A stretch of 49,523 nucleotides of DNA, from the NCBI GenBank assembly GCA_947631855.1, contig CANRMX010000012.1:1-49523 (forward strand). Direction: 5' to 3'. A model generated the notes under the pieces. That model was not told the origin of the DNA. It worked only from the letters and a program-made list of their open reading frames with translations, and searched no databases. The DNA is from an uncultured Clostridia bacterium. Lineage in GTDB: Bacteria > Bacillota > Clostridia > Oscillospirales > Acutalibacteraceae. The position numbers and the translations under genes are program-made. Shown in pieces: positions 6,294-38,284 of the stretch; the first letter of the stretch is position 1, and each line of letters opens with the position of its first letter.

Positions 6294-6428
6294 CGCGTTC
6301 CAAACACAATTTTCGCTTCACTCAAATAGCGGCGCTTGTTTTGTTGCACTGCATTTGGGCATAAAAAAAGAGCCGTGCTATCGGCCCCTGCGCTTGACAA
6401 TTTCGCGGTATTCTGCTATAATAAAGAC

Positions 6429-6522
6429 ACAAAGGGAAACTTGCCGGTAAGCGGCATGGCCCTCAGATGCATGTTACAAGTAGTAACCGTGATCCTTGGC
6501 CTGGAGCGGTTACTTCTTGTTT
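6429..6522 (+). ncRNA. Antisense RNA antitoxin of cassette 1
   Basis: Promoter TTGACA (6394-6399), 17-bp spacer, TATAAT (6417-6422), a perfect consensus. The RNA begins GGGAAACTTGCCGGTAAGCGG, containing a TGCCG-gtaag-CGGCA hairpin and GGCCCTC. It ends at the hairpin AGTAACCG (6482-6489)/CGGTTACT (6507-6514) plus a T-rich tail. It overlaps the last codons and the 3' end of the toxin mRNA, the RatA-TxpA type of arrangement. Confidence 0.8.
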
Positions 6523-6596
6523 ATTAATGCGACGATCAGAGAAATGATGATGCTGAGCACCATCAGACTGAGATGTAGCGCTTCATAAACAGTAAT
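6510..6596 (-). CDS. Hol-Tox type I toxin peptide, cassette 1 (ATT start?)
   Basis: A 28-codon frame encoding a membrane peptide with TVYEALHLSLMVLSIIISL followed by a short hydrophobic stretch and an NKK tail, matching the putative holin-like toxin (Hol-Tox) family, whose members usually begin MxVYExL. The codon at the initiator position is ATT (6594-6596), 7 nt after the GGAGGG site; the only nearby ATG sits directly against that site and opens a 6-codon out-of-frame peptide. The toxin promoter is AAGCAA/AGTATA on the plus strand, that is TTGCTT (6775-6770), 17-bp spacer, TATACT (6752-6747). Its leader of about 140 nt is folded into several hairpins. Too short for routine gene calling. Toxicity by membrane damage is known for the family, not shown here. 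Confidence 0.75.
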   Translation of the reverse strand: MTVYEALHLSLMVLSIIISLIVALINKK

Positions 6597-6799
6597 GCTG
6601 CATCCCTCCTTCGTCCAGAGATTCCCATCCTTGCGGTGGGTTTCTATGTCATCGGGAGAGTTTAGCACCCCTCTCCCGTTTCCGGGTGGAGGGCCAACCG
6701 CCTACCGTTACTGGCAAGTATTCCCGCGCCGTATCGGCGCAAGGACAGTATAACAGAGAATCCCACAAAAAGCAAGAAGAAGCGCACAATAAGAATCTT

Positions 6800-6985
6800 T
6801 CTTTGGCTGCACCTAACTTAAGAAATAGTGCCTCCCCACCTTCGGTGGGGAGGCACTTGCTCTTTGTGCGGTGGAGCCAAGTGTGCGCAGCCTCAACCTG
6901 CGGTCAAGCCACGTAAAGTTTTTCACTAACCTTTTGCTTGCAAAAGGTTTTAGCCTCTTTTTCAAAAAGGCTGGAAAACTTTCTG
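6800..6985. repeat. Mosaic repeat between cassette 1 and the ABC exporter
   Basis: Contains the palindrome GTGCCTCCCCACC-ttc-GGTGGGGAGGCAC (6828-6856), then the recurring GGTGGAGCCAAGT module and a short AT-rich hairpin stretch (CTTTTTCAAAAAG). These modules recur at 11.4, 12.5, 37.75, 42.6 and 45.3 kb. No gene. Confidence 0.7.
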
Positions 6986-7014
6986 TTGACAATCTCTCCC
7001 GCCCGTGCTACGAT
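6986..7014 (+). promoter_or_regulatory. ABC exporter operon promoter
   Basis: TTGACA (6986-6991), 17-bp spacer, TACGAT (7009-7014). It directs a leader of about 190 nt. Confidence 0.8.
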
Positions 7015-7020
7015 AGACAT

Positions 7021-7211
7021 ACCGTCAATCTGCATGGGGCCGTGACCCCATGCGCAGCAGACGCCGAAGTGCGCGCGGCCGTTACCCGTGCGTGTCCGGC
7101 GGTTATTTGGTCTGTCTGTGCAGGTGAACCAGGGCGACGGCGGGCCGAAGCCGGTCCCGCCGCCGTCCTTTGTTGTGCCGGCAGGCAGGCGTCCGTGAAC
7201 TTGAGGTGCAT
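7021..7211 (+). promoter_or_regulatory. Long structured 5' leader of the ABC exporter operon
   Basis: This GC-rich untranslated leader holds a perfect hairpin CATGGGG-ccgtga-CCCCATG (7033-7052), a multi-branched middle, and a strong hairpin GACGGCGG...CCGCCGTC near 7130-7160 followed by CTTTGTTGT, which could act as an attenuator about 40 nt before the start codon. I cannot match it to a named riboswitch. MDR-type exporters of this family are often controlled by leader attenuation, so regulation here is plausible. Confidence 0.5.
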
Positions 7212-9038
7212 ATGAAAGAAAGAACGAAACCAAAGAAGACCGCCAGCATCCTGCGGTTTTTCCCCTTCACCAAAGGGCTGCGGCACAAATTCGTGCTGGC
7301 CATGGTGATGGTGATCGTAGGCGTGGTGGCGAACTACATGACTCCCCAGGTGATCCGCGTCACAGTGGATTCTGTCATCGGGGAGGTGCCCTTCAACCTG
7401 CCGGGGGTTTTGGTGCGATTCATCGAATCCATCGGCGGGCGGGAGATGCTGCGCCAGCATATCATTCTGTGCGCGGCGGTGTCGCTGCTCTTTGCGGTGA
7501 TCGCCGGATTTGCCAACTATTCCTCCCGGATGCAGCTGACCCGGGCCTGTGAGGGCACGGTGGCGCGGCTGCGGGACAGATTGTTCGGCCACATCCAGCG
7601 GCTGCCCTATGCCTGGCACAATTCTCACCAGACCGGGGACATCATCCAGCGCTGCACCCAGGATGTGGAGCTGATCCGGGCTTTTGTCAGCGACCAGCTG
7701 ATGGAAGTGATCCGCACGGTGCTGCTGATCGTGGTCTCCCTGGCGCTGATGTTCACCATGAACGTGGGGCTGGCCCTGATCGTCTCGGCGTTTATTCCCG
7801 TGGTGCTGACCCTGTCCATCGTGTTCTTTGTCATCGTGGGCAAGCGCTTCCAGATCGCCGACGAGACCGAGGGGCAGCTCACCGCGCTGGTGCAGGAGAA
7901 TCTCACCGGCGTGCGGGTGGTGCGGGCCTTTGGCCGGGAGCGCTACGAGATCGACCGCTTCAACCGCAAAAATGAGGAATTCACCGATTATTGGGTGGAT
8001 TTGGGCAAGATCATGAGCTTCGACTGGGCCCTGGGGGATTTTTCCGCCGGGCTGCAGGTGCTGGTGGTCATCGCGGCAGGGGTGCTGTTCGTGGCCCGGG
8101 GGAACCTCACCGCAGGGGAATTCCTGGCCTTCACGGCCTATAATTCCATGCTGGTGTGGCCGGTGCGGAATTTGGGCCGGCTGCTGTCCGAGCTGAGCAA
8201 GACTTCCATCAGCTCCGCCCGCCTGTGCGAGATTCTGGACGCCGCCGAGGAGGCGGACGGCCCGGAGGCCGGTGTGCCGGAGATTCGCGGGGACATCGTA
8301 TTCGACCACGTGTCCTTCGGCTATCCCGACAGCAGCGTGGAGGTGCTGGAGGACGTGTCCTTCACCGTGAAGGAGGGGACAACCTTCGGCATCCTGGGGG
8401 CCACCGGCAGCGGCAAATCTACCCTGACCTACCTTCTGGACCGGCTGTACGACCTGCCCGAGGGGCAGGGGACGATCACCATCGGCGGGGTGGATATCCG
8501 GCAAATTCGCCGGGACCACCTGCGGAAAAACATCGGCATCGTGTTGCAGGAGCCCTTCCTGTTTTCCAAGACCTTCCGGGAGAGCATCGCCGACGGCGCG
8601 GGCCGGGACGACCTGAGGACCGTGCGGCACTATGCCCGCATTGCCGTCATCGACGACGCCATCGAGAACTTTGCCCAGGGGTATGATACGCCCATCGGCG
8701 AACGGGGCGTCACCATTTCCGGCGGGCAGAAGCAGCGGGTGGCCATCGCCCGGATGCTGATGCAGGACACGCCCATCAAAATTTTCGACGATTCCCTTTC
8801 CGCCGTGGATATGGAGACCGATGCGAAAATTCGCCGGTCCATCCAGGAGAACGTCCACGGCACCACCATCCTCATCGCCCACCGGATCGCCACCCTGATG
8901 AACGCCGACCAGATTTTGGTGCTGGATCACGGCCGGGTGGCCCAGCTGGGCACCCACGAGGAGTTGGCCCACACCGAGGGCATCTATCAGCGCATCTACG
9001 AGATGCAGAAGGGGCAGAGCGAGGAGGCGGCGGAATGA
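7212..9038 (+). CDS. ABC exporter half-transporter, degenerate-site subunit (TM287/BmrC type)
   Basis: A 608-residue fused membrane/ATPase protein. Six membrane helices (residues of about 25-310) precede the nucleotide-binding domain, with Walker A GATGSGKST, signature ISGGQKQR, Walker B IKIFDDSLSAVD and a switch His in LIAHRIATL. The residue after the Walker B Asp is Asp rather than the catalytic Glu, as in the degenerate subunit of heterodimeric exporters such as BmrC/TM287. The partner with a normal Glu is encoded at 9543-11375. It probably exports drugs, lipids or peptides. The ATG at 7212, after TTGAGGTG, is chosen over an upstream in-frame ATG inside the structured leader. The stop overlaps the next start by 4 nt. 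Confidence 0.92.
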   Translation: MKERTKPKKTASILRFFPFTKGLRHKFVLAMVMVIVGVVANYMTPQVIRVTVDSVIGEVPFNLPGVLVRFIESIGGREMLRQHIILCAAVSLLFAVIAGFANYSSRMQLTRACEGTVARLRDRLFGHIQRLPYAWHNSHQTGDIIQRCTQDVELIRAFVSDQLMEVIRTVLLIVVSLALMFTMNVGLALIVSAFIPVVLTLSIVFFVIVGKRFQIADETEGQLTALVQENLTGVRVVRAFGRERYEIDRFNRKNEEFTDYWVDLGKIMSFDWALGDFSAGLQVLVVIAAGVLFVARGNLTAGEFLAFTAYNSMLVWPVRNLGRLLSELSKTSISSARLCEILDAAEEADGPEAGVPEIRGDIVFDHVSFGYPDSSVEVLEDVSFTVKEGTTFGILGATGSGKSTLTYLLDRLYDLPEGQGTITIGGVDIRQIRRDHLRKNIGIVLQEPFLFSKTFRESIADGAGRDDLRTVRHYARIAVIDDAIENFAQGYDTPIGERGVTISGGQKQRVAIARMLMQDTPIKIFDDSLSAVDMETDAKIRRSIQENVHGTTILIAHRIATLMNADQILVLDHGRVAQLGTHEELAHTEGIYQRIYEMQKGQSEEAAE

Positions 9039-9568
9039 ACATCGTGCTGGAGCTGCTGCCGGCGGGGGACAAATCCCTGCTGGCCCGGCTGATGGAGCTG
9101 TATTTTTACGAGCTTTCGGACTACACCGATGCGGACGTGAACGCCCACGGGCTGTACGGCTACGCCCATCTGGACGACTACTGGAACCAGCCCGGCCGGT
9201 TTCCCTACTTAATCCGCGTGGATGGGCAGATCGCGGGCTTCGCCCTGGTGTGCCCGTACTGCGAGTACATCCGCGGCGCAGACGCCCGGAGCATCGGGGA
9301 ATTTTTCGTGCTGCGCCGGTACCGGGGCCAGGGCGTGGGGAGCTTCACCGCCCGCTGGATTTTCGACCATCATCCCGGCCATTGGGAAGTGTGCTATCTG
9401 CAAAGGAATCAAACGGCCGGGGAATTCTGGAAAAAAGTGATTGGCGCCTACACGGAGGGGCGGTATGAAACCTGCGGCGGCGGCACGGACCGGCGGCGGG
9501 GCTTCACGTTCCATACCGGTGGGCGCATGGAGGGAACGATTCGTGAGCAACAGACAAAAGGAACATAA
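9035..9568 (+). CDS. GNAT family N-acetyltransferase
   Basis: A 177-residue cytosolic acetyltransferase. The acetyl-CoA loop is visible as FFVLRRYRGQGVGSF (about residues 91-105), preceded by the beta strand with GQIAGFALV. Its start overlaps the stop of the first ABC gene (ATGA) and its end overlaps the second ABC gene by 26 bp, so the three genes form one translationally coupled operon. A single acetyltransferase between two exporter halves suggests it modifies the exported compound or a related toxic molecule; this is inferred from position only. Substrate unknown. Confidence 0.85.
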   Translation: MNIVLELLPAGDKSLLARLMELYFYELSDYTDADVNAHGLYGYAHLDDYWNQPGRFPYLIRVDGQIAGFALVCPYCEYIRGADARSIGEFFVLRRYRGQGVGSFTARWIFDHHPGHWEVCYLQRNQTAGEFWKKVIGAYTEGRYETCGGGTDRRRGFTFHTGGRMEGTIREQQTKGT

Positions 9569-11375
9569 GGAGCGGTTTACGTCCCTGAAAGTATGGGCGA
9601 AGTTGCTGCCTTTTCTAAAGCCCTACGCCAAAAGCATGGCGGTGGTGCTCATCACCATGCTGGTGAACGCCGGGGTGGACATCGTCTACCCGCTGTTCTC
9701 GGGCTACGCGGTGGATAGATTCATCACGCCCCGCACCACCCAGGGCCTGTGGGGATTTGCCGCGGCTTACCTGCTGGTGGTGCTGGTGCAGATGACCTGC
9801 ACCCTGATCTTCGGCCGGGTGGCCCTGCGGGTGGAGATGTACCTGGGCCGGGACCTGAAAAAGACCCTGTTCACCCATTTGCAGACTCTGAGCTTTTCCT
9901 ATTATAACCAGACGCCGGTGGGTACCATCATGGCCCGGGTGATGAGCGACACCGGGAAGATCGGCGGCGTGTTCGCCTGGAGCCTGGTGGATATCTTCTG
10001 GAGCGGCGCTTACGTGCTGGGCTGCATGGGCGTGATGCTGTGCTTCAACTGGCGGCTCGCCCTGCTGGTGATCGTCACGGTGCCGGCCATCGCGCTGCTG
10101 ACGCTGTACTTCCAGAAGCGTATCCTAAAGATCAACCGGGAGGTGCGCAAGATCAACGCGGAGCTCACCCGGCACTACAACGAGGGCATTTCCGGGGCCA
10201 AGACCTCCAAGACGCTGGTGATCGAGGACAAGAACACCGCGGCCTTTGGGGAAGTCACCGAGCGGATGCGTTCCCGCACGGTGCACGCGGTGATGCTCAA
10301 CGCCGTGTACGTGCCCATCATCGGGTTCCTCACCTCCCTGGCGGTGGCCTTTGTGATCACCGGGGGAGGCGGCATGGCGCTCAAAGGGGACCTGAGCATC
10401 GGCGACCTGACGGTGTTCGTGAATTACGCTTTGATCATCGCCGACCCGGTGCAGACCCTGGCCGGGACGATCTCCAATTTTATTTCCACCCAGGCCAATA
10501 TCGAGCGGGTCACCGCCCTGATGGAGCTCCAGCCGGAGATCACCGACACCCCGGCAGTCATCGAAAAATACGGCACTTCTCTCGATCCCAAGCGGGAAAA
10601 CTGGGAGCCGCTGGAAGGCCGCATCACCTTTGAGGATATTTCTTTCCGCTATCCCGACGGCACGGAAAATGTGCTGGAGCACTTCGATCTGGAGGTGCCC
10701 GCAGGATCCACCGTGGCCATCGTGGGGGAGACCGGCGCGGGGAAATCCACGCTGGTGAACCTGGCCTGCCGATTCTTCGAGCCCACCCAGGGCCGCATCC
10801 TCATCGACGGCCGGGATTACCGGGAGCGCAGCATGCTGTGGCTGCACAGCAATATCGGCTATGTGCTGCAAACGCCCCACCTGTTCTCCGGCACGGTGAA
10901 GGAGAATATCCGCTACGGCCGGCTGGACGCCACCGATGAGGAGATCGTGGCGGCGGCCAAGCTGGTCAATGCCCACGACTTCATCATGCGCATGGAGAAG
11001 GGCTACGACAGCGACGTGGGCGAGGGCGGCGGCCAGCTCTCCACCGGAGAAAAGCAGCTGGTCTCCTTTGCCCGGGCGGTCTTGGCCGATCCCCGCATCT
11101 TCGTGCTGGACGAGGCCACCTCCTCCATCGACACCCACACCGAGGCCCTGATCCAGGAGGCCATTTCCACCCTGCTCACCGGGCGCACCAGCTTCCTCAT
11201 CGCCCACCGGCTGTCCACCATCCGCAAGGCGGATATGATCCTGGTGGTGCGGGGCGGAAAGATCATCGAGCAGGGCACCCATCGGGAATTGATGCAGCGC
11301 GGCGGCTACTACGCCGAGCTGTACTCCCGGCAGTTCGAGACGGAAACAGCGGAGAGCATATTAACTGCCAAGTAG
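9543..11375 (+). CDS. ABC exporter half-transporter, catalytic subunit (TM288/BmrD type)
   Basis: A 610-residue fused membrane/ATPase protein. Six helices, then Walker A GETGAGKST, signature LSTGEKQL, Walker B RIFVLDEATSSID with catalytic Glu, and LIAHRLSTI. The signature departs from LSGGQ, which is common in the partner that faces a degenerate site. It forms a heterodimer with the product of 7212-9038. The start is the GTG at 9543, 8 nt after GGAGGG; an upstream ATG in frame (9441) would lengthen the overlap with the GNAT gene and lacks a good ribosome site. The following mosaic repeat (11541-11571 palindrome) probably terminates the operon. Confidence 0.92.
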   Translation: MSNRQKEHKERFTSLKVWAKLLPFLKPYAKSMAVVLITMLVNAGVDIVYPLFSGYAVDRFITPRTTQGLWGFAAAYLLVVLVQMTCTLIFGRVALRVEMYLGRDLKKTLFTHLQTLSFSYYNQTPVGTIMARVMSDTGKIGGVFAWSLVDIFWSGAYVLGCMGVMLCFNWRLALLVIVTVPAIALLTLYFQKRILKINREVRKINAELTRHYNEGISGAKTSKTLVIEDKNTAAFGEVTERMRSRTVHAVMLNAVYVPIIGFLTSLAVAFVITGGGGMALKGDLSIGDLTVFVNYALIIADPVQTLAGTISNFISTQANIERVTALMELQPEITDTPAVIEKYGTSLDPKRENWEPLEGRITFEDISFRYPDGTENVLEHFDLEVPAGSTVAIVGETGAGKSTLVNLACRFFEPTQGRILIDGRDYRERSMLWLHSNIGYVLQTPHLFSGTVKENIRYGRLDATDEEIVAAAKLVNAHDFIMRMEKGYDSDVGEGGGQLSTGEKQLVSFARAVLADPRIFVLDEATSSIDTHTEALIQEAISTLLTGRTSFLIAHRLSTIRKADMILVVRGGKIIEQGTHRELMQRGGYYAELYSRQFETETAESILTAK

Positions 11376-11580
11376 CGCACATCTGCAAACTTTTTCGAGA
11401 AAAAGTTTGACAAAAAGCTTTACGTGGCTCCACCGCAGGTTGAGCCTGGCGGCCTGACGCCGCGGACACGACCCGCGTGAAAGTAAGATAAAGCGGTAAG
11501 TCAACAGCCCGCGCCGAGGCTACCCTGAGCCGTATAAAACGTGCCTCCCCGCCCGTAGGGCGGGGAGGCACGTTCTCTTA
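11376..11580. repeat. Mosaic repeat and terminator after the ABC operon
   Basis: Holds CTTTTTCGAGAAAAAG (a hairpin), the GTGGCTCCACC module, and the palindrome CGTGCCTCCCCGCCC-gta-GGGCGGGGAGGCACG (11540-11572) followed by TTCTCTTA. It is the first downstream terminator for the exporter operon. No gene. Confidence 0.7.
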
Positions 11581-11779
11581 ATTTCGGCTAAGCAAAAAAG
11601 TTCCTGTTACGCGCTTTTGCTTGCAATTGCGGGGATATTCTGTTATACTGTCCTTGCGCCGGATACGGCGCGGGAATACTTGCCAGTAACGGTAGGCGGT
11701 TGGCCCTCCAGCTTTTCATAAGGAGGGTGAAGATTCTTTTCCGGGTCCACCCCGGCCCTCCTGGAAAGGAGGGATGTCC

Positions 11780-11875
11780 ATGGATGCAGTCACGTGGGCT
11801 GAAATCTTTCAGTACACCATGGTACTCATTTCCTTTGCTGCATTGCTTGTGGCAATCGGACATAAAAAGAAGTAA
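11780..11875 (+). CDS. Hol-Tox type I toxin peptide, cassette 2 (divergent, ATG start)
   Basis: A 31-residue peptide beginning MDAVTWAEIFQYTMVLISFA and ending in HKKK: one membrane helix with a basic tail, a second Hol-Tox subtype. Promoter TTGCAA (11621-11626), 17-bp spacer, TATACT (11644-11649). Unlike the other cassettes it has a proper ATG, 6 nt after GGAGGG, and its leader is a different sequence in which CCCTCC-tggaaa-GGAGGG places the ribosome site inside a stem-loop. This cassette keeps the common 5' hairpin at 11680-11710 and the convergent antisense gene. It sits directly upstream of cassette 3. Confidence 0.8.
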   Translation: MDAVTWAEIFQYTMVLISFAALLVAIGHKKK

Positions 11876-11956
11876 CCGCCCAAAGCCAAAGGATAGCGGA
11901 TACTTCTTTTTTTCGCATTTCTTAGGGCCACCGTCTACCGGCAAGTTTCCCTTTGT
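11862..11956 (-). ncRNA. Antisense RNA antitoxin of cassette 2
   Basis: Minus promoter TTGACA-like TTGACA (11991-11986), 17-bp spacer, TACAAT (11968-11963). The RNA starts with GGGAAACTTGCCGGTAGACGG and GGCCCTAAG and ends in the imperfect stem 11896-11905/11869-11878 followed by a T-rich tract. It overlaps the toxin stop region. Confidence 0.72.
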
Positions 11957-12218
11957 GCTTTTATTGTAGCAGAATTGAAGCGGATTGTCAAGCCTCGCTT
12001 TACAGAGATACGGATGGTGCGAAAATCCCCGCTTTTGCTTGCAATTTCGGGGATTCTCTGTTATACTTTTCTTGCGCCAAATACGGCGCGGGAATACTTG
12101 CCGATAACGGTAGGCGGTTGGCCCTCCACCCGGAAACGGGAGAGGGGTGCTAAACTCTCCCGATGACATAGAAACCCACTGTCAAGATGGGAATCTTTGG
12201 GCAAAGGAGGGATGCAGC

Positions 12219-12305
12219 ATTACTGTTTATGAAGCGCTACATCTCAGTCTGATGGTGCTCAGCATCATCGTGTCTCTGATTGTCGCATTAATAGACAGAA
12301 AGTAA
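12219..12305 (+). CDS. Hol-Tox type I toxin peptide, cassette 3 (ATT start?)
   Basis: A 28-codon frame, TVYEALHLSLMVLSIIVSL then VALIDRK, same family as cassette 1. ATT at 12219-12221 occupies the initiator position 7 nt after GGAGGG. Promoter TTGCAA (12039-12044), 17-bp spacer, TATACT (12062-12067). The leader has hairpins CCCG-gaaa-CGGG and GGGAGA/TCTCCC, plus GGCCCTCC, which is complementary to the ribosome site. No in-frame ATG exists before codon 12. Confidence 0.75.
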   Translation: MTVYEALHLSLMVLSIIVSLIVALIDRK

Positions 12306-12385
12306 CCGCTCCGGCCAAGGAACGCGGTTACTATCTGTAACTCATTTCTGAGGGCCATGCCGCTTACCGGCAAGTTTCCCTTTGT
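12293..12385 (-). ncRNA. Antisense RNA antitoxin of cassette 3
   Basis: Minus promoter TTGACA (12420-12415), 17-bp spacer, TATAAT (12397-12392). Ends at CGGTTACT/AGTAACCG (12325-12332/12301-12308) with a T-rich tail; the same hairpin serves the toxin mRNA from the other side. Confidence 0.8.
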
Positions 12386-12414
12386 GTCTTTATTATAGCA
12401 AAAACGAGGCGGGT

Positions 12415-12620
12415 TGTCAAGCGCGGCTTACCCAGACATACAGAATATGCCCTCCCTGTCCTACGGGCGAGGAGACCCTAAATAATCAAGTTGCAGCCGA
12501 GCCAAGTGAACGCGGCCTCAGGCCGCCCGCCCGTAGGGCGGGGAGCCCCGTTATCTCAGTTGGGTGGAGCCAAGTAAAGTTCTTTTTGCTTACTTTTTCT
12601 TTCAAGAAAAAGTAAGTCCT
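12415..12620. repeat. Mosaic repeat flanking cassette 3
   Basis: About 110 bp starting at the antitoxin promoter (12392-12505) reappear inverted at 37780-37905, next to cassette 6, with only scattered mismatches. The rest contains CCCGCCC-gta-GGGCGGG (12527-12543), the GGTGGAGCCAAGTAAAG module and the hairpin CTTTTTCTTTCAAGAAAAAG (12593-12612). Confidence 0.75.
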
Positions 12621-12631
12621 GCCTGCCCGGC

Positions 12632-13441: not shown

Positions 13442-13450
13442 CGCGTTCAG

Positions 13451-13809: not shown

Positions 13810-13847
13810 TTTGTATAAACCGAGCACACTTTAGGAGGGATGGGACT

Positions 13848-14751: not shown

Positions 14752-14925
14752 AGGCGGGCGGTGGCCTGAGGCCGCGGGCACGACGCGGGCTCCGTTCGCT
14801 CCGCTCACTTGCTGAGCACAAGGAGTGACTTTTCCGGTCGCGCCCGATAGATATACGCAGTGCCTCCCCGCCCGTAGGGCGGGGAGGCACTATTTCATAA
14901 GTTAGGTGTAGCCCAGGAAAAGTGC
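14752..14925. repeat. Mosaic repeat and terminator after lexA
   Basis: Contains GACGCGGGCTCCGTTCGCTCC...CACTTGCTGAGCACA, the GGTCGCGCCCGATAGAT end module, and the palindrome GTGCCTCCCCGCCC-gta-GGGCGGGGAGGCAC (14860-14890), which likely terminates lexA. No gene. Confidence 0.75.
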
Positions 14926-15122
14926 TTATTATGCGCTTTTTCTTGCTTTTTCGGGAATTCTCTGCTATACTTTATCTTGCGCCGATATGGCGTGGGAATA
15001 CTTGCCAGTAACGGTAGGCGGTTGGCCCTCCACCCGGAAACGGGAGAGGGGTGCTAAACTCTCCCGATGACATAGAAACCCATCGTCAAGATGGGAATCT
15101 TTGGGCAAAGGAGGGATGCAGC

Positions 15123-15209
15123 ATAACTGTTTATGAAACGCTACATCTCAGTCTGATGGTATTGAATATCATCGTCACGGTGATCTTAGCGACCATAAAC
15201 AAGAAGTAA
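15123..15209 (+). CDS. Hol-Tox type I toxin peptide, cassette 4 (ATA start?)
   Basis: 28 codons: TVYETLHLSLMVLNIIVTV then ILATINKK, the most divergent of the ITVYE group, yet the frame is preserved. ATA (15123-15125) stands at the initiator position, 7 nt after GGAGGG. Promoter TTGCTT (14943-14948), 17-bp spacer, TATACT (14966-14971). The leader is almost identical to those of cassettes 3 and 5. Confidence 0.75.
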   Translation: MTVYETLHLSLMVLNIIVTVILATINKK

Positions 15210-15289
15210 CCGCTCCAGGCCAAGGATGACGGTTACTTCTTGTAATCACATCTGAGGGCCATGCCGCTTACCGGCAAGTTTCCCTTTGT
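15197..15289 (-). ncRNA. Antisense RNA antitoxin of cassette 4
   Basis: Minus promoter TTGACA (15324-15319), 17-bp spacer, ATTATA on plus = TATAAT (15301-15296). Terminator stem 15230-15238/15204-15212 with a TTCTTGTTT tail. Shares the GGGAAACTTGCCGG hairpin start. Confidence 0.8.
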
Positions 15290-15550
15290 GCCTGTATTAT
15301 AGCAAAAACGAAGCGGGTTGTCAAGCCTCACCGCTTCTAGATTCGGAAAGTACGAAAGCAGCTCTTTTTCTTGCATTTTCGAGGATTCTCTGCTATACTT
15401 TTCTTGCGTCGAATACGGCGCGGGAATACTTGCCAGTAACGGTAGGCGGTTGGCCCTCCACCCGGAAACGGGAGAGGGGTGCTAAACTCTCCCGATGACA
15501 TAGAAACCCACCGCTAGGATGGGAATCTTTGGGCAAAGGAGGGATGCAGC

Positions 15551-15637
15551 ATAACTGTTTATGAGGCGCTACATCTCAGTCTGATGGTGCTCAGCATCAT
15601 CATTCCTCTGATTGTCGCATTAATAAACAAGAAGTAA
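15551..15637 (+). CDS. Hol-Tox type I toxin peptide, cassette 5 (ATA start?)
   Basis: 28 codons: TVYEALHLSLMVLSIIIPL then IVALINKK. A Pro replaces Ser in the middle of the membrane helix, which could weaken or alter toxicity. ATA at 15551-15553, 7 nt after GGAGGG. Promoter TTGCAT (15371-15376), 17-bp spacer, TATACT (15394-15399). A tandem copy of cassette 4, spaced 428 bp. Confidence 0.74.
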   Translation: MTVYEALHLSLMVLSIIIPLIVALINKK

Positions 15638-15717
15638 CCGCTCCAGGCCAAGGATGACGGTTACTTCTTGTAATCCAATCTGAGGGCCATGCCGCTTACC
15701 GGCAAGTTTCCCTTTGT
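15625..15717 (-). ncRNA. Antisense RNA antitoxin of cassette 5
   Basis: Minus promoter TTGACA (15752-15747), 17-bp spacer, TATAAT (15729-15724). Terminator stem 15658-15666/15632-15640. Confidence 0.8.
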
Positions 15718-15752
15718 GCCTTTATTATAGCAGAATACCGCGAAATTGTCAA

Positions 15753-19834: not shown

Positions 19835-19910
19835 GACTCATTAGCTCAGTTGGCAGAGCACTTGACTTTTAATCAAGGTGTCCGGGGTTCGAATCCCCGA
19901 TGGGTCACCA
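19835..19910 (+). tRNA. tRNA-Lys (anticodon TTT)
   Basis: A 76-nt cloverleaf with encoded CCA. Acceptor GACTCAT/ATGGGTC, D-arm AGCTCAGTTGGCAGAGC, anticodon stem CTTGA/TCAAG with loop CTTTTAA (anticodon TTT), and T-arm CGGGGTTCGAATCCCCG. A 22-bp copy of its 3' end recurs at 20204-20225, so this gene appears to be the target of an inserted element. Confidence 0.97.
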
Positions 19911-20201
19911 CGTCGCGGCGAGCCCTTGTGGCTCGCCGCATTTTCATGCGAAAATGCGGCTTCGCTTATCGGGCTGCCGCTCCTTGCCGCAAAAAGTCTC
20001 GCTCGGCTCGCCTGCTCGGTTGCAAGCGCCCTCGCGACGGCTCGCTGTCGCTACCAACTTTTTGCGGTTTTGCGTCTGCGGCGCAGAAAATAGCTACATT
20101 CAATTACAAACACCCAGAGGAAAGTTTTTAGTGCAGAGCGGCGAGACCGGGACCCCACAGCGAAGCTGTGGGGTGGGCGAGCCGGTAGGCGGCAAGGCCG
20201 C
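19911..20201. mobile_element. Geneless element between tRNA-Lys and its duplicated 3' end
   Basis: Directly after the CCA, 19911-20100 is a dispersed repeat (copy 2 at 22449-22655) with hairpins GCGGCGAGCC-cttgt-GGCTCGCCGC and GCATTTTCATGCGAAAATGC. A second part (20140-20200) carries GACCCCACAGC-gaa-GCTGTGGGGT. The block ends at a copy of the tRNA 3' end. There is no integrase or other gene inside its roughly 290 bp, so it is a relic or a non-autonomous element. Short frames rich in Arg and Ser here are not genes. Confidence 0.55.
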
Positions 20202-22387: not shown

Positions 22388-22448
22388 GTATTCTTTACGC
22401 ACTACTCATGTACAATTGGCAAAAAAATCTTTTTTGGCGGGAATAGAC

Positions 22449-22655
22449 ACGTCGCGGCGAGCCCTTGTGGCTCGCCGCATTTTCATGCGAAAATGCGGCT
22501 TCGCGTTTCGGGCTGCAAAAAGCTGCGGAGCAGGCTTTTCTCCTTCTCCGCAAAAAGTCTCGCTCGGCTCGCCTGCTCGGTTGCAAGCGCCCTCGCGACG
22601 GCTCGCTGTCGCTAACAACTTTTTGCGGTTTTGCGCCTACGGCGCGGAAAAAGAA
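22449..22655. repeat. Second copy of the tRNA-associated repeat
   Basis: Nearly identical to 19911-20100, with a 28-bp longer segment in the middle (22513-22550). It has the same GGCGAGCC/GGCTCGCC and ATTTTCATGCGAAAAT hairpins and ends near GGTTTTGCG. No tRNA is adjacent here. Confidence 0.8.
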
Positions 22656-28305: not shown

Positions 28306-28849
28306 GCCCGCATGCACGACGCGGGCTCCGTTCGCTTCGCTCACTTGCCAAGCACAAGTGACAAGTTTTCCGTCGCGCCCGATAGCGCCATGAAGCCGTA
28401 GACACTTGGCGCTACCGAATTTAAGATAATTATGCCTCTCCATCTGGGGAGGCACGTTTTATGTCTTAAGCGAACTTGCGCACAAGCAAAGCCCACCCGC
28501 GCCCGCACACAGTAAATTCCGCGGCGCGCGTGGCCGCGCAGGCCAAGTCGCGGAAAAGTTGTCATCAAACCGCAAACAAGTGGTCGCGTCCGAAAGTTAG
28601 AACAGACAGCAGCCCACTCTTTCTCAGCAGGCGCTATCGGGCGCGAGCGAAAAAGCTACCTTCTTCGCTCGGCAAGTGAGCGAAGCGAACGAAGCCCGCG
28701 AATTAACCCGCGCCGCGAAAAGGGCGTGTAGGCACAGCGCATTTTGCGTCCCGCACGCAGTAAATTCCGCGCCCCGTCAAGTCGTTTCCAGCACCTACCA
28801 GCGTGCGTTTAGCACGCGCTCCGCGAAGTGGCCCGGCCGGTCACGCCGC
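28306..28849. repeat. Large mosaic repeat block between M20 and SBP genes
   Basis: About 540 bp with no gene. Two copies of the GTGAGCGAAGCGAACG(A/G)AGC module in opposite directions (28318-28350 and 28675-28700), CGGGCGCGA modules, and a weak TGCCTC...GAGGCA terminator at 28432-28453. The sequence is clearly degenerate, as if several repeats inserted into each other. Confidence 0.7.
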
Positions 28850-33029: not shown

Positions 33030-33068
33030 GAGGCCAACAATACAAATCAACAGACTGGAGGAAGACCC

Positions 33069-33893
33069 ATGCAATCCAAATTCTTTACGGCGGAGAAGAT
33101 CTTCGACAACGTGACCCGCATCGGCGGGCTGGCAGGTGAGCTGTGCTATCTGGTGGAGGGCAGCGAAAAGGCCCTGCTCATCGACGGGCTCACCGGGGTA
33201 GGCAGCCTGAAAGCCTTCGTGCGGGAGCTCACCGACCTGCCGGTGACGCTGGTGCTGACCCACGGCCATGTGGATCACATCGGCGCGGCCTTCGAGTATG
33301 GGGAATGCTGGCTCCATCCCGACGACATCGCCCTGCTGTACGAGCACGGCGACGCAGAGGCCCGGCTGGGCTTTGCCAGCGGCGGCGGACGGAAGATCGA
33401 TCCCGCGGACGTGGTGCCGCCCCGGGCCATCCGCACGCTGCCCGTGCAGGACGGCCATGTGTTCGATCTGGGCGGCGTGCAGCTGGAAGTGATCCACGTG
33501 CCCGGCCACACCTATGGCTCCATCGTGCTGCTGGACCGCGCCCGGCGGATCGTCTATTCCGGCGACGCGTGCAACGCCAACACCCTGCTGTTCCTGCCGG
33601 GCTCCACCACCATCCAGGAATACAAGGAGGCCCTGCTGCACTTCAAGACCTTCCAGCCCGCCTTTGACGGGATGTTCGGTGGCCACGGGCCGGGACCGGT
33701 ACCCAACACGCTGGTGGACGAGGCCCTCCAACTCTGCGACGAGATCATGGCCGGTACCGACGATCAGGAGCCGGGGGGCTTCATCGGCCGGGAGTGCCTG
33801 TATGCCCGGAAGAAAAACGAATTCTTCCAGCGGGCGGACGGCGGCATCGCCAACATCGCCTATTCCAAAGACAGGATCTGGAAAGCACAATAA
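33069..33893 (+). CDS. MBL-fold metallo-hydrolase
   Basis: A 274-residue enzyme with metal site THGHVDHIGAA, HVPGHTYGS, the bridging Asp in YSGDACNAN, and a final GGHGPGP histidine. All ligands of a two-zinc MBL site are present. The family includes glyoxalase II-like and quorum-lactone hydrolases; the substrate cannot be read. It is 39 bp behind pcrA with its own GGAGGAAGACCC site, so likely cotranscribed. A terminator follows at 33902-33933. Confidence 0.88.
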   Translation: MQSKFFTAEKIFDNVTRIGGLAGELCYLVEGSEKALLIDGLTGVGSLKAFVRELTDLPVTLVLTHGHVDHIGAAFEYGECWLHPDDIALLYEHGDAEARLGFASGGGRKIDPADVVPPRAIRTLPVQDGHVFDLGGVQLEVIHVPGHTYGSIVLLDRARRIVYSGDACNANTLLFLPGSTTIQEYKEALLHFKTFQPAFDGMFGGHGPGPVPNTLVDEALQLCDEIMAGTDDQEPGGFIGRECLYARKKNEFFQRADGGIANIAYSKDRIWKAQ

Positions 33894-33901
33894 AGCGCTC
33901 T

Positions 33902-33933
33902 GCCCGCCTCCGTGTACACCGGGGCGGGCTTTT
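33902..33933 (+). terminator. Terminator after the MBL gene
   Basis: GCCCGCC (33902-33908) pairs with GGCGGGC (33923-33929), then TTTT. Confidence 0.8.
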
Positions 33934-34008
33934 GCAATTAGAACTAGAGGTAACAGAAACCCCGCCGCGCCATAGAATGGAATGAGAAATCCCAAAGGAG
34001 GAGATTCT

Positions 34009-34902
34009 ATGGCCGAAAACGAAGCCATGCCCGAGCTGGAAAACCGGGACTACTTCAAAGAAGCGGTCTGTATCGACGCAATGCGCATCTACGACAGCTG
34101 CAGCGATAAGGACTGTGTGGAAGACATACGGGTGCTGTTCACCGCCGGACAGCAGGCGCTGGTCAACAGCGCCACCAATGTGCGCCTGAAGGACGTCAGC
34201 GTCCTGACGGCGTACCTGGACTTGCAGCCCATTCCCTTTCACCGCGGATTCTATTCCGTGGACATGACGTTCTTCTTCGACGTGACGGTGGAGCTGTTCG
34301 GCGGGCCGTCATCCTGCCCCATGCCGGTGAGCGGCGTATCGGTGTTCAACAAGAAAGTCATTCTGTATGGCAGCGAGGGCAGCGTGAAGATGTTCTCCTC
34401 CGGCGACTGTTCCGACAGCGTGGAGGTGAAGGACAGCCGCGTGCTGCCGAAAGCCACGGTGCAGGTGGCGGAGCCCATCGCCCTGTCCGCCCGTCTGTGC
34501 GACCGGCCGCTGATGTCCTCGGAGCCCTACTGCCGCATCCCGGAGAGCATCGCCCGGCTGTACGGCGGCGACCTGGAGACCGCGCCCCAGGGCAACAACG
34601 TGTACGCCACCATTGGGCTGTTCACCATCGTGCAGATCGTGCGCAACGTGCAGATGCTGGTGCCCGCCTATGATTTCTGCGTGCCGGAGAAGGAGTGCGT
34701 CACCTCCACCGACGACCCCTGCGACCTGTTCCGGCGGATCGACTTCCCCATGGATGAGTTCTTCCCGCCCAGGGCCTCTGAGCTGAATGGTGAGCCCAAG
34801 ACCGGCAGGGCAGACAGCCGTTCCCGTGATTTTGGCCCCGCACCTCGTCCACGTGAGGTCATGCCGTCCGATTCTCCCGACCCCCATTTCGGGTGGGATT
34901 GA
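34009..34902 (+). CDS. Conserved Clostridia protein, cysteine-containing, possibly spore-related
   Basis: 297 residues, no signal peptide. It carries the blocks DYFKEAVCIDAMRIYDSCSD, RLKDVSVLTAYLDLQPIPFH, FNKKVILYGSEGSVKMFSS and VPEKECVTSTDDPCDLFRRIDFP, which I recall as strongly conserved in a hypothetical family of sporulating Clostridia. The conserved Cys residues and lack of enzyme motifs suggest a structural role, for example in the spore coat. This is inference. The last 35 residues (Arg/Ser/Pro-rich) are not conserved-looking. Start from AAAGGAGGAGATTCT. Confidence 0.75.
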   Translation: MAENEAMPELENRDYFKEAVCIDAMRIYDSCSDKDCVEDIRVLFTAGQQALVNSATNVRLKDVSVLTAYLDLQPIPFHRGFYSVDMTFFFDVTVELFGGPSSCPMPVSGVSVFNKKVILYGSEGSVKMFSSGDCSDSVEVKDSRVLPKATVQVAEPIALSARLCDRPLMSSEPYCRIPESIARLYGGDLETAPQGNNVYATIGLFTIVQIVRNVQMLVPAYDFCVPEKECVTSTDDPCDLFRRIDFPMDEFFPPRASELNGEPKTGRADSRSRDFGPAPRPREVMPSDSPDPHFGWD

Positions 34903-34923
34903 GCGGCCCGATTGATAGAAAGT

Positions 34924-34954
34924 AGTCCACCCCCAGCAAAGCTGGGGGTGGACT
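34924..34954. terminator. Hairpin terminator after 34009-34902
   Basis: AGTCCACCCCCAGC (34924-34937), aaa, GCTGGGGGTGGACT (34941-34954): a perfect 14-bp stem. Lacks a long T-run. Confidence 0.7.
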
Positions 34955-35127
34955 GCCATTGAATCTCAGCTGACGGGCGAAAAATCCCCGGACACCGGCA
35001 GGACTTTTCGGTTTTTTCCCATCTTTTCGGAAAATTCCCCTTACGCGGCCGCAAAAAATATGCTATACTATAGGTAGACGAAAGCGTGGAGAAGCCAAGG
35101 TGTGACAGTGTTGCGGAGGGGAATCAA

Positions 35128-35649
35128 ATGTATCGAATCAGTGATTTAGTGGTGTATGGCAGCAGCGGCGTCTGCCGGGTGATGGAGATCCGCTCACAGC
35201 CCTTTCCCACCACCGGCGAGGAGCGGCTGTACTATGTGCTGCAGGCGCTGGGCGATCACTGCACGATCTCCGTGCCGGTGGATTCCGACAAGGTGTTTAT
35301 GCGGCCGGTCATCTCCCGCCAGGAGGCGGAGGCGCTGATCGATTCCATCCCCCAGCTGGACGCCCAGGCGTATCACAGCAAGGCCCCCAGAGAATTGGCC
35401 GAGCACTACGAGGCGCTGCTCAAGACCCACGACTGCGCGTCCCTGCTGGCCATGACCCGGTCCATCTATCTGAAAAAGCAGGAGCTTTTGCGGCAGAAGC
35501 GAAAGTTCGGCTCCGTGGACGAGCGGTTTTTGAAGCGGGCGGAAGAGCTGCTTTTCGGAGAGCTGGCCGCCGCGCTGGAGATCCCCCGGGACAAGGTGCT
35601 GGATTTCATCACCGCCCGGGTGGGCAGCCAGGCCGGGGCGGAGCAATAA
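35128..35649 (+). CDS. CarD-family transcription regulator
   Basis: A 173-residue protein. The N-terminal tudor-like CarD/TRCF RNA polymerase-interaction domain (VVYGSSGVCRVMEI...ERLYYVLQAL...ISVPVDSD) is followed by a helical C-terminal half (LLAMTRSIYLKKQELLRQKRKF...FLKRAEELLFGELA), as in CarD. CarD stabilises open promoter complexes at rRNA and stress promoters. GGAGGGGAATCAA before the ATG at 35128. A TATACT (35064-35069) with weak -35 is the likely promoter. Confidence 0.9.
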   Translation: MYRISDLVVYGSSGVCRVMEIRSQPFPTTGEERLYYVLQALGDHCTISVPVDSDKVFMRPVISRQEAEALIDSIPQLDAQAYHSKAPRELAEHYEALLKTHDCASLLAMTRSIYLKKQELLRQKRKFGSVDERFLKRAEELLFGELAAALEIPRDKVLDFITARVGSQAGAEQ

Positions 35650-35668
35650 AGCAAAATCACAGGCAGCA

Positions 35669-35702
35669 AAAGGGCCGTCTCTCGCGAGGCGGCCTTTCGT
35701 TT
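35669..35702. terminator. Bidirectional terminator between carD-like gene and cysE
   Basis: AAAGGGCCGTCTC-tcgc-GAGGCGGCCTTT with T-rich tail on the plus side and AAAA on the left. It separates convergent genes. Confidence 0.8.
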
Positions 35703-36586
35703 TATTCGTTTTTCGGGGCGCTTTGGGTCTTCATGCTGACTCTGCTCCCACGGGGCACGGACTGGGTCACAAAGGCGTTGCCGCCCACCACCACGTCCGC
35801 TTCGATCACCGTGTCCCCACCCAGGATGGAGGCCCCGGAATAGATGGTCACGTTGTCGCCGATGGTGGGGTGGCGCTTCACGCCCTTGAGCTTCTGCCCG
35901 CCCTTGGTGGAGAGGCCGCCCAGGGTGACGCCCTGATAAATTTTCACGTGGCTGCCGATCACCGTGGTCTCGCCGATGACGATGCCCGTGCCGTGATCCA
36001 TGAAGAAATAGTCGCCGATCTGCGCCCCGGGATGGATATCGATGCCGGTGACGCTGTGGGCGTGCTCGGTCATGATCCGCGGGATCATGGGCACGCCGAT
36101 GGTAAACAGCTCGTGGGCGATGCGGTACACCGAAATGGCGTACAATCCCGGATAGGACAGGATCACCTCGTCCCTGCTGTTGGCCGCCGGGTCGCCGTCG
36201 AAGGCCGCCTGGATGTCCGTATCCAGCACCGCCCGAATACGCGGGATGCGCTCCATAAAGGCGAAGGTCATTTCCCGTGCCCGATCCTCCAGCCCGTCGG
36301 CCTCGTCGCCGCTGTACCGCAGCACCGCCGCGATCTGCTTGTGCAGGTGGAAGATCACGTCCTCCACGGCGGCGGCCATATAGTGCTCCAGGCTGAACAG
36401 CTTCCGTTCCCGCTCGCCGTAGTAGCCGGGATAGAGCAGCTGCAGCAGCTTCTCCACCAGCTCCAGGATGGCCTTCTTGTCCGGCTGGTTGTACAGGTCG
36501 GTTTTATTCACCGCCCGGTCGTCGCCGTAATCGTCCAGGATCGCCTGCACAATGTGCGCCACCCGGTTGGAATCCAGTTTCTCCAT
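35702..36586 (-). CDS. cysE: Serine O-acetyltransferase
   Basis: A 294-residue enzyme making O-acetylserine from serine and acetyl-CoA. A long helical N-terminal part (residues 1-165, EpsC type) precedes the left-handed beta-helix hexapeptide domain: GIDIHPGAQIGDYFFMDHGTG (catalytic His near 199), VIGETTVIG, VTLGGLSTKGGQKLKGVKRHPTIGD and ILGGDTVI. It is the second gene of a cysK-cysE operon, 15 bp after cysK, and the pair forms the cysteine synthase complex. The C-terminus here is short and basic (SMKTQSAPKNE) rather than ending in Ile, which the CysK-binding tail normally requires. Confidence 0.93.
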   Translation of the reverse strand: MEKLDSNRVAHIVQAILDDYGDDRAVNKTDLYNQPDKKAILELVEKLLQLLYPGYYGERERKLFSLEHYMAAAVEDVIFHLHKQIAAVLRYSGDEADGLEDRAREMTFAFMERIPRIRAVLDTDIQAAFDGDPAANSRDEVILSYPGLYAISVYRIAHELFTIGVPMIPRIMTEHAHSVTGIDIHPGAQIGDYFFMDHGTGIVIGETTVIGSHVKIYQGVTLGGLSTKGGQKLKGVKRHPTIGDNVTIYSGASILGGDTVIEADVVVGGNAFVTQSVPRGSRVSMKTQSAPKNE

Positions 36587-36601
36587 AGGTGCGTCTCCTT
36601 C

Positions 36602-37540
<939 letters not shown>

Positions 37541-37614
37541 TGTTTCGTTTCCTCCTTCATGGGTATATATCCACTGTATGGGAAATTCCTCGTTTGTGCC
37601 CCTCGTGCCATTCC

Positions 37615-37643
37615 ATTATAGCACGGGCGCGGAGTTTTCACAA
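37615..37643 (-). promoter_or_regulatory. cysK-cysE promoter
   Basis: Minus strand TTGTGA (37643-37638), 17-bp spacer, TATAAT (37620-37615). Confidence 0.78.
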
Positions 37644-37668
37644 GTGCGCCTGCTTTTTGTTTTTGATT

Positions 37669-37875
37669 GATATTCCCCCGCCGAAGGCGGGGGAATATCA
37701 TCTCTTACGGCTGGGGGCAGCCTGAAGCGTGATTCTTCACAAGTGCACCTACTTTTTCTTGAAAGAAAAAGGAAGCAAAAAGAACTTTACATGGCTCGAC
37801 CGCAACTTGATGATTTAGGGGCTCCCCGCCCGTAGGACAAGGAGGGTATATTCTGTACGTCTGGGTAAGCCGCGC
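37669..37875. repeat. Mosaic repeat left of cassette 6
   Basis: The palindrome GATATTCCCCCGCC-gaa-GGCGGGGGAATATC (37669-37699), the CTTTTTCTTGAAAGAAAAAG hairpin (37750-37769), the GGCTCGACCGCAACTTGATGA module, and a segment to 37905 that is the inverted copy of 12392-12505 beside cassette 3. Confidence 0.78.
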
Positions 37876-37910
37876 TTGACAACCCACCTCGTTTTTGCTA
37901 TAATAAAGGC

Positions 37911-38003
37911 ACAAAGGGAAACTTGCCGGTAAGCGGCATGGCCCTCAGACACTAGTTACAGATAGTAACCGCGTTCCTTGGCCGGAGCGGTTACTTTCTG
38001 TCT
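37911..38003 (+). ncRNA. Antisense RNA antitoxin of cassette 6
   Basis: Promoter TTGACA (37876-37881), 17-bp spacer, TATAAT (37899-37904). Starts GGGAAACTTGCCGGTAAGCGG, ends at AGTAACCG (37964-37971)/CGGTTACT (37988-37995) plus TTTCTGTC. Confidence 0.8.
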
Positions 38004-38077
38004 ATTAATGCGACAATCAGAGAAATGATGATGCTGAGCACCATCAGACTGAGATGTAGCGCTTCATAAACAGTTAT
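37991..38077 (-). CDS. Hol-Tox type I toxin peptide, cassette 6 (ATA start?)
   Basis: 28 codons: TVYEALHLSLMVLSIIISL then IVALIDRK. ATA (38077-38075) at the initiator position, 7 nt after GGAGGG. Promoter TTGCTT (38258-38253), 17-bp spacer, TATACT (38235-38230). The Asp-Arg-Lys tail matches cassette 3 and differs from Asn-Lys-Lys of cassettes 1, 4 and 5. Confidence 0.75.
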   Translation of the reverse strand: MTVYEALHLSLMVLSIIISLIVALIDRK

Positions 38078-38284
38078 GCTGCATCCCTCCTTTGTCCAGA
38101 GATTCCCGTTTTTGTGACGGGTTTCTATGTCATCGGGAGAGTTTGCGCACCCCTCTCCCGTTTCCGGGTGGAGGGCCAACCGCCTACCGTTACTGGCAAG
38201 TATTCCCGCGCCGTATCCGGCGCAAAGACAGTATAACAGAAAAGAATCGAAAAAGCAAGAAAAAGCGCGTAACAGAAACTTTTT

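What the first reader, a model, noticed from the sequence alone, without database searches (positions are those of the whole stretch)
6394..38258. Six copies of a convergent Hol-Tox / antisense RNA type I toxin-antitoxin cassette in 32 kb
Cassettes at 6394-6775 (minus), 11621-11991, 12039-12420, 14943-15324, 15371-15752 (plus) and 37876-38258 (minus) are seen directly. In each, a TTGCNN-17-TANACT-type promoter reads a roughly 140-nt leader and a 28-31-codon hydrophobic frame with the Hol-Tox pattern, and a TTGACA-17-TATAAT (or TACAAT) promoter on the other strand reads a ~90-nt RNA ending in the shared hairpin at the toxin stop. The layout is that of TxpA-RatA. Copies 2-3 and 4-5 are tandem. 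High copy number in one region suggests addiction of repeat-rich DNA or a family still spreading.
Basis: partly seen in the sequence, partly recalled or inferred. Interest (0 to 1): 0.78.

Follow-up and report, generated by a model that had tools for sequence, protein, structure and literature searches.

The report
Amplified toxin and antisense-RNA cassettes
These are six of 25 known copies, in one bacterial genome, of a small self-poisoning gene with its antisense-RNA antidote, a known kind of system; the unusual part is that nearly all copies of the commoner version have lost the normal start signal of the poison gene while keeping the antidote.

Summary
The six cassettes are real, at the stated coordinates: facing promoters and a shared terminator hairpin at the toxin stop. 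They belong to a genome-wide amplification of 25 copies, often tandem pairs. An antisense-RNA model built here matches 23 of 29 genomes of the genus, 45 of 150 of the family, other families of the phylum and IMG/VR contigs: a widespread type I toxin-antitoxin family without an Rfam match. The peptides resemble Hol-Tox/TxpA toxins but stay below Pfam's cut-off. First, there are two toxin bodies. In 14 of 15 copies of the commoner one the start position reads ATA or ATT, whereas 100 of 139 callable foreign loci have ATG, GTG or TTG. Second, the toxin leader and the antisense RNA's 5' part are co-varying inverted copies, so a full-length toxin mRNA could pair its ends; some canonical Hol_Tox loci show this too. 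Most likely: Hol-Tox-like type I modules silenced by 3'-overlapping antisense RNA, most local copies weakened or disarmed at the start codon. Expression and toxicity were not tested. Addiction of this region is not supported.

The parts
6394..6775 (-). Cassette 1, class A. Toxin frame 6510-6596 (-) with ATT at the start position, then TVYEALHLSLMVLSIIISLIVALINKK; antisense RNA 6427-6522 (+)
11621..11991 (+). Cassette 2, class B. Toxin frame 11780-11875 (+), ATG, MDAVTWAEIFQYTMVLISFAALLVAIGHKKK; antisense RNA 11863-11958 (-)
12039..12420 (+). Cassette 3, class A, in tandem with cassette 2. Toxin frame 12219-12305 (+) with ATT at the start position; antisense RNA 12293-12387 (-)
14943..15324 (+). 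Cassette 4, class A. Toxin frame 15123-15209 (+) with ATA at the start position, then TVYETLHLSLMVLNIIVTVILATINKK; antisense RNA 15197-15291 (-)
15371..15752 (+). Cassette 5, class A, in tandem with cassette 4. Toxin frame 15551-15637 (+) with ATA at the start position; antisense RNA 15625-15719 (-)
37876..38258 (-). Cassette 6, class A. Toxin frame 37991-38077 (-) with ATA at the start position; antisense RNA 37909-38003 (+)
15422..15458 (+). Example of the toxin-mRNA leader block GGGAATACTTGCC..TAACGGTAGGCGGTTGGCCCTC (cassette 5), the inverted copy of the block below
15682..15712 (+). Example of the complementary block opposite the antisense RNA's 5' part, GAGGGCCATGCCGCTTACCGGCAAGTTTCCC (cassette 5)

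Best explanation
Each cassette is a type I toxin-antitoxin module of a Hol-Tox/TxpA-RatA-like kind. One promoter makes an mRNA with a structured leader of about 125-145 nt and a hydrophobic peptide of 27-31 residues with a Lys/Arg end. A strong opposing promoter makes an antisense RNA of about 95 nt that ends at the hairpin over the toxin stop codon. [quoted passage not shown] The toxin leader is an inverted, co-varying copy of the antisense RNA's 5' part. A toxin mRNA that runs past the hairpin can therefore pair its own ends, possibly a second brake like the hok fold-back. In this genome the module has been amplified to at least 25 copies that mostly share the antitoxin-binding block, so antitoxins should silence most other copies too. 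In most class A copies the toxin start has drifted to AUA/AUU, so the peptide is made very weakly or not at all. Shown by sequence and comparison: layout, family, copy number, inverted and co-varying ends, the start codons. Inferred: transcription, toxicity, pairing in the cell, cross-silencing, attenuation.
For: Six cassettes with facing promoters and a shared hairpin. The antisense model matches 23 of 29 genus genomes, 45 of 150 family genomes and 13 of 249 phylum genomes, own included each time. The antisense RNA is predicted to have 16 pairs, of which 6 change on both sides in some sequence. A 19-nt leader-only pattern found 45 stretches in genome contigs (four are places already used to build the model) and 10 in viral contigs. 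Of these 55 loci, 54 have a match to the antisense model; of their 59 leaders, 55 have the antisense motif downstream and 54 an SD-preceded ATG or GTG frame. Cognate leader/3' block duplexes average -47.9 kcal/mol against -36.7 for non-cognate over 47 loci, 0 of 10,000 permutations as good. 67 of 67 modelled mRNAs put at least 12 leader/3' pairs in the minimum-energy fold; with a shuffled 3' block 15 of 67. Start codons in class A: ATA 10, ATT 4, ATG 1. Own copies share a median of 30 nt of exact antitoxin target, against 10.5-19 in four other multi-copy genomes.
Against: No transcript, duplex or toxicity data. Peptides are below the Pfam Hol_Tox cut-off, and Hol_Tox finds nothing in the own genome. 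No Rfam antitoxin model matches. Predicted SD accessibility hardly differs between full-length and hairpin-truncated mRNA (0.23 against 0.20 unpaired; more open on truncation in 4, less in 12, same in 51 of 67), so the fold-back is not shown to hide the SD. The shared hairpin may end many toxin transcripts before the complementary block is made: 4.7 T in 9 nt on the toxin side, 5.9 on the antisense side. Part of the leader/3' complementarity is built in by how loci were chosen. The shared antitoxin target may only reflect recent amplification, and 42 of 506 own pairs share less than 20 nt.
Confidence: 0.75

Rival explanations
1. The start-less class A copies are kept as antitoxin donors. Disarmed toxins leave a reservoir of antisense RNA that protects the cell from the intact class A and class B copies (anti-addiction).
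For: 14 of 15 class A copies lack ATG/GTG/TTG, while the own antisense promoters read TTGACA..TATAAT or TACAAT except in the decayed copy L063. Antitoxin-only relatives seem common: 29 of 139 callable foreign loci have neither leader nor intact toxin frame by my filters; a few of these (e.g. L203, L172) keep part of the frame. Toxin-less orz antitoxins are reported in E. coli (PMC11264685, passages). Shared target of 30 nt.
Against: Toxin promoters, leaders and SDs are kept, which a pure antitoxin donor would not need. No exact match of 20 nt or more to cassette 5's antisense target was found in 107 foreign loci (maximum 17), so protection against foreign copies is doubtful. The toxin frame shows no stop or frameshift in 15 copies.
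Confidence: 0.3
2. AUA and AUU are working, deliberately weak start codons that limit toxin synthesis, as described for non-AUG starts of other type I toxins.
For: The SD and its spacing are kept (gap 7; foreign relatives mostly 6-8). The frame is intact in 15 of 15 copies. An ACG sits at the same position in a locus of another family (L091). Non-AUG starts as a brake on type I toxins are in a review (PMC8167048, section 10). ATA and ATT interleave on the tree rather than forming one clade each.
Against: In the main class A group (11 copies) 7 of 13 changes are non-synonymous (my count) against a neutral 68-73%, P 0.11-0.20: no significant purifying selection. Among the foreign frames listed I saw none with ATA or ATT as its only possible start (L226_523 has ATT directly before an ATG).
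Confidence: 0.3
3. The 380-bp unit is a passive mobile repeat (MITE-like, its inverted ends acting as terminal repeats), and the toxin-antitoxin parts are relics.
For: Long inverted repeats at the ends, 25 dispersed copies, several cut by contig ends, no conserved position beside lexA.
Against: The same architecture with ATG or GTG frames occurs in many genera. Similarity runs past the unit into shared flanks, e.g. 12152-12510 with 37786-38144, so the ends are not sharp. Target-site duplications were not looked for.
Confidence: 0.12
4. The class A peptide starts at the internal in-frame ATG (codon 12), or at an upstream GTG, giving a 17-residue or an extended product.
For: Codon 12 is ATG in 15 of 15 copies; the frame is open for 63 or more codons back from the stop in 11 of 15 copies.
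Against: By eye no SD precedes codon 12. Going back from the stop the frame is closed after 34, 39 and 44 codons in L057, cassette 5 and L055_419.
Confidence: 0.08

Closest known systems
txpA/RatA (Bacillus subtilis skin element) and Pfam Hol_Tox PF16935 loci
   Different: Window peptides below the Hol_Tox cut-off; antisense RNA about 95 nt (RatA/txpA overlap about 120 nt, PMC3531473, passages); no Rfam RatA match.
Clostridioides difficile type I modules (e.g. RCd8 to RCd12)
   Same: Convergent, multi-copy in a Clostridia genome.
   Different: Toxins of 34-59 aa without homology to other type I toxins, many in prophages, some beside CRISPR arrays, mostly cognate-specific antitoxins (PMC6563280, sections 4-5). 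Here most copies share the antitoxin target, and the window copies lie among housekeeping genes.
hok/sok (and, recalled, Helicobacter AapA1/IsoA1)
   Same: Toxin mRNA whose 5' and 3' ends can pair (fold-back / long-distance interaction; PMC8167048, passages and section 10).
   Different: Here the 5' arm copies the antisense RNA's own 5' part, and no effect on SD accessibility is predicted.
E. coli zor/orz with orz-only loci
   Same: Multi-copy type I module with antitoxin-only copies (PMC11264685, passages).
   Different: Different toxin and RNA; here the usual change in the own genome is start-codon loss with the frame kept.

Membership tests
Type I toxin-antitoxin system | Short hydrophobic toxin frame with SD and start codon | tested here: inconclusive
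   Met for six class B copies and one class A copy; 14 of 15 class A copies have ATA/ATT. Met in 100 of 139 callable foreign loci.
Type I toxin-antitoxin system | Antisense RNA gene with own promoter overlapping the toxin mRNA | tested here: met
   Consensus promoters; RNA model conserved with compensatory pairs. Sequence only, no transcript.
Type I toxin-antitoxin system | Toxicity relieved by the RNA | not testable with these tools
   Needs an experiment.
Pfam Hol_Tox (PF16935) | Score above the curated cut-off 23.3 bits | tested here: not met
   Five window peptides: 8.1-14.1 bits or no match; of ten further peptides (nine foreign, one own) the best reaches 20.4 bits and the own one has no match; no match in the own genome.
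txpA/RatA | Convergent genes with overlapping RNA 3' ends | tested here: met
   The modelled antisense RNA ends inside the toxin frame, 10 nt before the stop, in all six.
txpA/RatA | Match to the Rfam RatA model | tested here: not met
   No such match in the window at gathering score, nor up to E 5 in 11 loci.
hok-like fold-back regulation | Pairing of mRNA 5' and 3' ends | tested here: met
   Predicted in 67 of 67 mRNAs; cognate pairing better than permuted. Prediction only.
hok-like fold-back regulation | Fold-back blocks translation until 3' processing | tested here: inconclusive
   No predicted change of SD accessibility on truncation; processing not testable.
MITE-like mobile repeat | Sharp ends with target-site duplication | not tested
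   Shared flanks beyond the unit seen; duplications not searched.

The most novel reading that the evidence does not exclude
A chromosomal type I toxin-antitoxin family has been amplified to 25 or more copies in a disarmed form: the AUG of the toxin was lost from nearly all copies of one class, while the antisense promoter and a common antitoxin target of about 30 nt were kept. The genome would hold a collective RNA immunity in which start-less cassettes silence the few armed ones.
Probability: 0.25. Interest if true: 0.7.

Novelty: new member of a known kind. Interest (0 to 1): 0.48.

Why it matters
It brings to light an RNA-defined type I toxin-antitoxin family that is common in Oscillospiraceae-related genomes, reaches Lachnospiraceae, Negativicutes (Anaerovibrio lipolyticus) and virus-derived contigs, and falls below Pfam's cut-off and outside Rfam; the covariance model gives a way to find it. 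The genome offers a natural experiment: armed (ATG) and start-less copies of one module side by side. That makes two open questions testable, namely what holds many copies of a suicide module in one chromosome, and whether AUA/AUU can serve as a brake on toxin translation.

Tried and rejected
Regional addiction: rejected, copies are genome-wide and the ten neighbouring genes scanned are housekeeping types. Phage or plasmid source of the local copies: DNA comparison with 'phages' and 'plasmids' gave no match, and three exact patterns gave none in viral contigs. N-terminal extension from an upstream GTG: rejected, the frame is closed in three copies. SD hiding by the fold-back: not supported. 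The first two versions of the leader/3' comparison with canonical Hol_Tox loci were unsuitable: loci on the minus strand were wrongly oriented in 84, and gap costs were too lenient in 85. The third put 39 of 49 loci of this family and 10 of 23 canonical loci above all 200 shuffles; three further canonical loci without a recognised frame had been dropped, and only the 26 loci handed out for the best of the Hol_Tox matches were tried. An exact leader pattern in 295 order genomes was too strict (3 with a match, own included), as was a 31-nt pattern in genome contigs (0). A single phage record matched a relative's peptide at E 0.1, taken as chance; plasmids gave none. The first pN/pS figure (0.39 over all class A pairs) was set aside: the 3' halves look like a mosaic of older lineages. 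The short hairpin beside several cassettes could not be counted genome-wide: my pattern captured one place.
Full report
Observation. From -35 to -35 each is 371-383 bp: a TTGCNN-17-TATACT-type promoter, a leader, a hydrophobic frame, a hairpin at the stop codon, and an opposing TTGACA-17-TATAAT (one TACAAT) promoter. The antisense RNA is modelled at 92-96 nt in the own copies (98 in the decayed copy L063). In cassette 5 it folds into a small 5' hairpin and a strong terminator (z -3.8, 1 of 200 shuffles as stable).

Genome-wide. The window is contig C12 of a 1.84-Mb, 59-contig, 81%-complete assembly. BLAST with cassette 5 gave 31 matches, several of them halves of one cassette. The sequences fetched show 25 distinct copies at 18 places, among them tandem pairs and several copies cut by contig ends (own count). 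Two toxin bodies share the same ends: class A (TVYEALHLSLMVLSII..) and class B (MDAVTW.. / MNQVTW..).

Family. A covariance model of the antisense RNA (R1, 14 sequences) matches 23 of 29 genomes of the genus at E<=0.01, 45 of 150 of the family at E<=1e-4 and 13 of 249 of the phylum at E<=1e-5; each count includes the own genome. Of these 55 loci, 54 have an R1 match at E<=0.01. Of their 59 leaders, 55 had the antisense motif downstream and 54 an SD-preceded frame of 20-48 codons with ATG (47) or GTG (7); a few of these frames look shifted, e.g. L260 and L265. The genus is near Neglectibacter (Oscillospiraceae): the lengths of contigs in G028, G027 and G001 equal those of records titled Neglectibacter sp., Oscillospiraceae bacterium and Bacterium D16-76 (inference). 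In viral contig L286 the cassette lies about 100 bp from an integrase gene, downstream of tail-fibre, holin and endolysin genes.

Known families. Rfam gives only a tRNA in the window at gathering score, and no antitoxin family up to E 5 in 11 loci. Pfam Hol_Tox gives 8.1-14.1 bits for four class A window peptides (cassette 6's was not scanned) and none for class B. Of ten further peptides, nine foreign and one own, one foreign reaches 20.4 bits (E 4.6e-4, full length), one 11.4, and the own ATG copy has no match. I therefore call it Hol-Tox-like, not a Hol_Tox member.

Start codons. The stop lies at a nearly fixed distance from the antisense end, so the frame is known. In class A of this genome the start position reads ATA in 10, ATT in 4 and ATG in 1 of 15 copies, with the SD in place. 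Among callable foreign loci, 100 of 139 are complete with ATG/GTG/TTG, 10 have a leader but no canonical frame by my filter, and 29 have neither (6 foreign loci were set aside for contig edges or N runs and 2 own ones for contig edges; loci L181, L186 and L188 had been removed beforehand, L181 and L188 because they were refetched). Read by eye in the listing, several of the 10 are broken or have a lost stop, at least one (L145) has an ATG that the SD filter missed, and one (L091, another family) has ACG. Fisher's test for own (14 of 21, one of them the decayed class B copy L063 with CTG) against others (10 of 110) gives P 5e-8, but the own copies are paralogues and not independent. In two other amplified genomes 10 of 16 (G412) and 7 of 11 (G415) parsed copies have a canonical start by the same kind of filter. 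ATA and ATT interleave on a poorly supported tree. I counted 7 of 13 non-synonymous changes in the main class A group of 11, not different from neutral (P 0.11-0.20). So weak use and disuse of the frame cannot be told apart.

Inverted ends. The leader GGGAATACTTGCC..TAACGGTAGGCGGTTGGCCCTC and the block GAGGGCCATGCCGCTTACCGGCAAGTTTCCC after the hairpin are inverted copies. Hence the antisense RNA begins with a sequence very like part of the toxin leader, and a toxin mRNA running past the hairpin can pair its ends (cassette 5: -144.3 kcal/mol, z -8.7, 100 shuffles). Over 47 foreign loci, cognate leader/3' pairs average -47.9 kcal/mol and non-cognate -36.7; 0 of 10,000 permutations are as low. 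Among the 20 own copies cognate and non-cognate are alike (-53.9 and -53.8). Loci were chosen by the leader motif and the antisense model, so the core complementarity is partly built in; the cognate excess is not. All 67 modelled mRNAs have at least 12 such pairs, 64 at least 20; with shuffled 3' blocks 15 of 67 have at least 12. Against a simple lock, SD accessibility is 0.23 (full) and 0.20 (truncated), more open on truncation in 4, less in 12, same in 51. With a stricter local measure 39 of 49 loci of this family and 10 of 23 canonical Hol_Tox loci exceed all 200 shuffles. The inverted design is therefore not unique to this family.

Readthrough. In the 9 nt after the hairpin the toxin strand has 4.7 T on average and the antisense strand 5.9 (antisense more in 57, equal in 23, less in 4 of the 84 of 130 loci where the hairpin was recognised). 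The hairpin looks like a better terminator for the antitoxin, and some toxin readthrough is plausible.

Cross-silencing. The toxin-strand segment opposite the antisense RNA shares a median of 30 nt of exact match between the 23 own copies (464 of 506 ordered pairs share 20 nt or more, minimum 8) and 30 nt between classes A and B, but 10.5-19 nt among the 7-10 copies compared in each of four other multi-copy genomes, and at most 17 nt between cassette 5 and 107 foreign loci. Cross-silencing within this genome is thus predicted; against foreign copies it is not.

Mobility. Neighbours scanned include a polysaccharide deacetylase, ABC transporters, an M23 peptidase, LexA, a GH36 enzyme and a PLP enzyme. 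Of 28 genus lexA loci, own included, only the own one carries cassettes within the fetched flanks of up to 1.5 kb. Repeated flanks beyond the unit point to copying of segments rather than clean transposition; target duplications were not looked for.

Literature. Read: PMC6563280 sections 4-5, PMC8167048 passages and section 10, passages of PMC3531473 and PMC11264685, outline, abstract and start of the introduction of PMC11228461. Other papers were seen as listings only. Searches for Hol-Tox with type I (none), txpA/RatA (30 of 32 listed), putative holin-like toxin, non-canonical start codon, Oscillospiraceae, long-distance interaction, orphan antitoxin, txpA with Enterococcus or inverted repeat (10 of 25 listed), PF16935 and Ruminococcaceae (12 of 54 listed) showed no description of this family in the rows listed; the library is open-access only.

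Verdict. A real, amplified, Hol-Tox-like type I toxin-antitoxin family. The kind is known. What is new is the extent of the family and the near-complete loss of the canonical start codon in one class, whose meaning is open.

Noticed in passing
window 11538-11574, about 14862-14892, about 6825-6855, about 38300-38330: A GC-rich hairpin (GTGCCTCCCCGCC...GGCGGGGAGGCAC type) lies just upstream of cassettes 1, 2, 4 and 6; related ones occur elsewhere in the window (e.g. in 1876-1959 and 28421-28504). Perhaps a repeat or terminator family of its own; my genome pattern captured only one place.
   Followed up: partly
window 42782-43217: Two direct tandem copies of 218 nt, 94% alike.
   Followed up: no
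window 19987-20090 and 22548-22651; 19909-19977 and 22448-22516: Repeats of 104 nt (96%) and 69 nt (97%) about 2.5 kb apart, just after a tRNA gene at 19835-19907, possibly an integration site.
   Followed up: no
L063 (own contig C38): A decayed class B copy: start position CTG and the antisense promoter replaced by other sequence, so both toxin start and antitoxin promoter appear lost.
   Followed up: partly
L229, L231, L234, L236 (genomes G395, G332, G098, G314): Units that look antitoxin-only or truncated lie next to complete cassettes of the same family.
   Followed up: partly
L286 8928-10710 (IMG/VR): In this viral contig the cassette sits about 100 bp from an integrase gene.
   Followed up: partly
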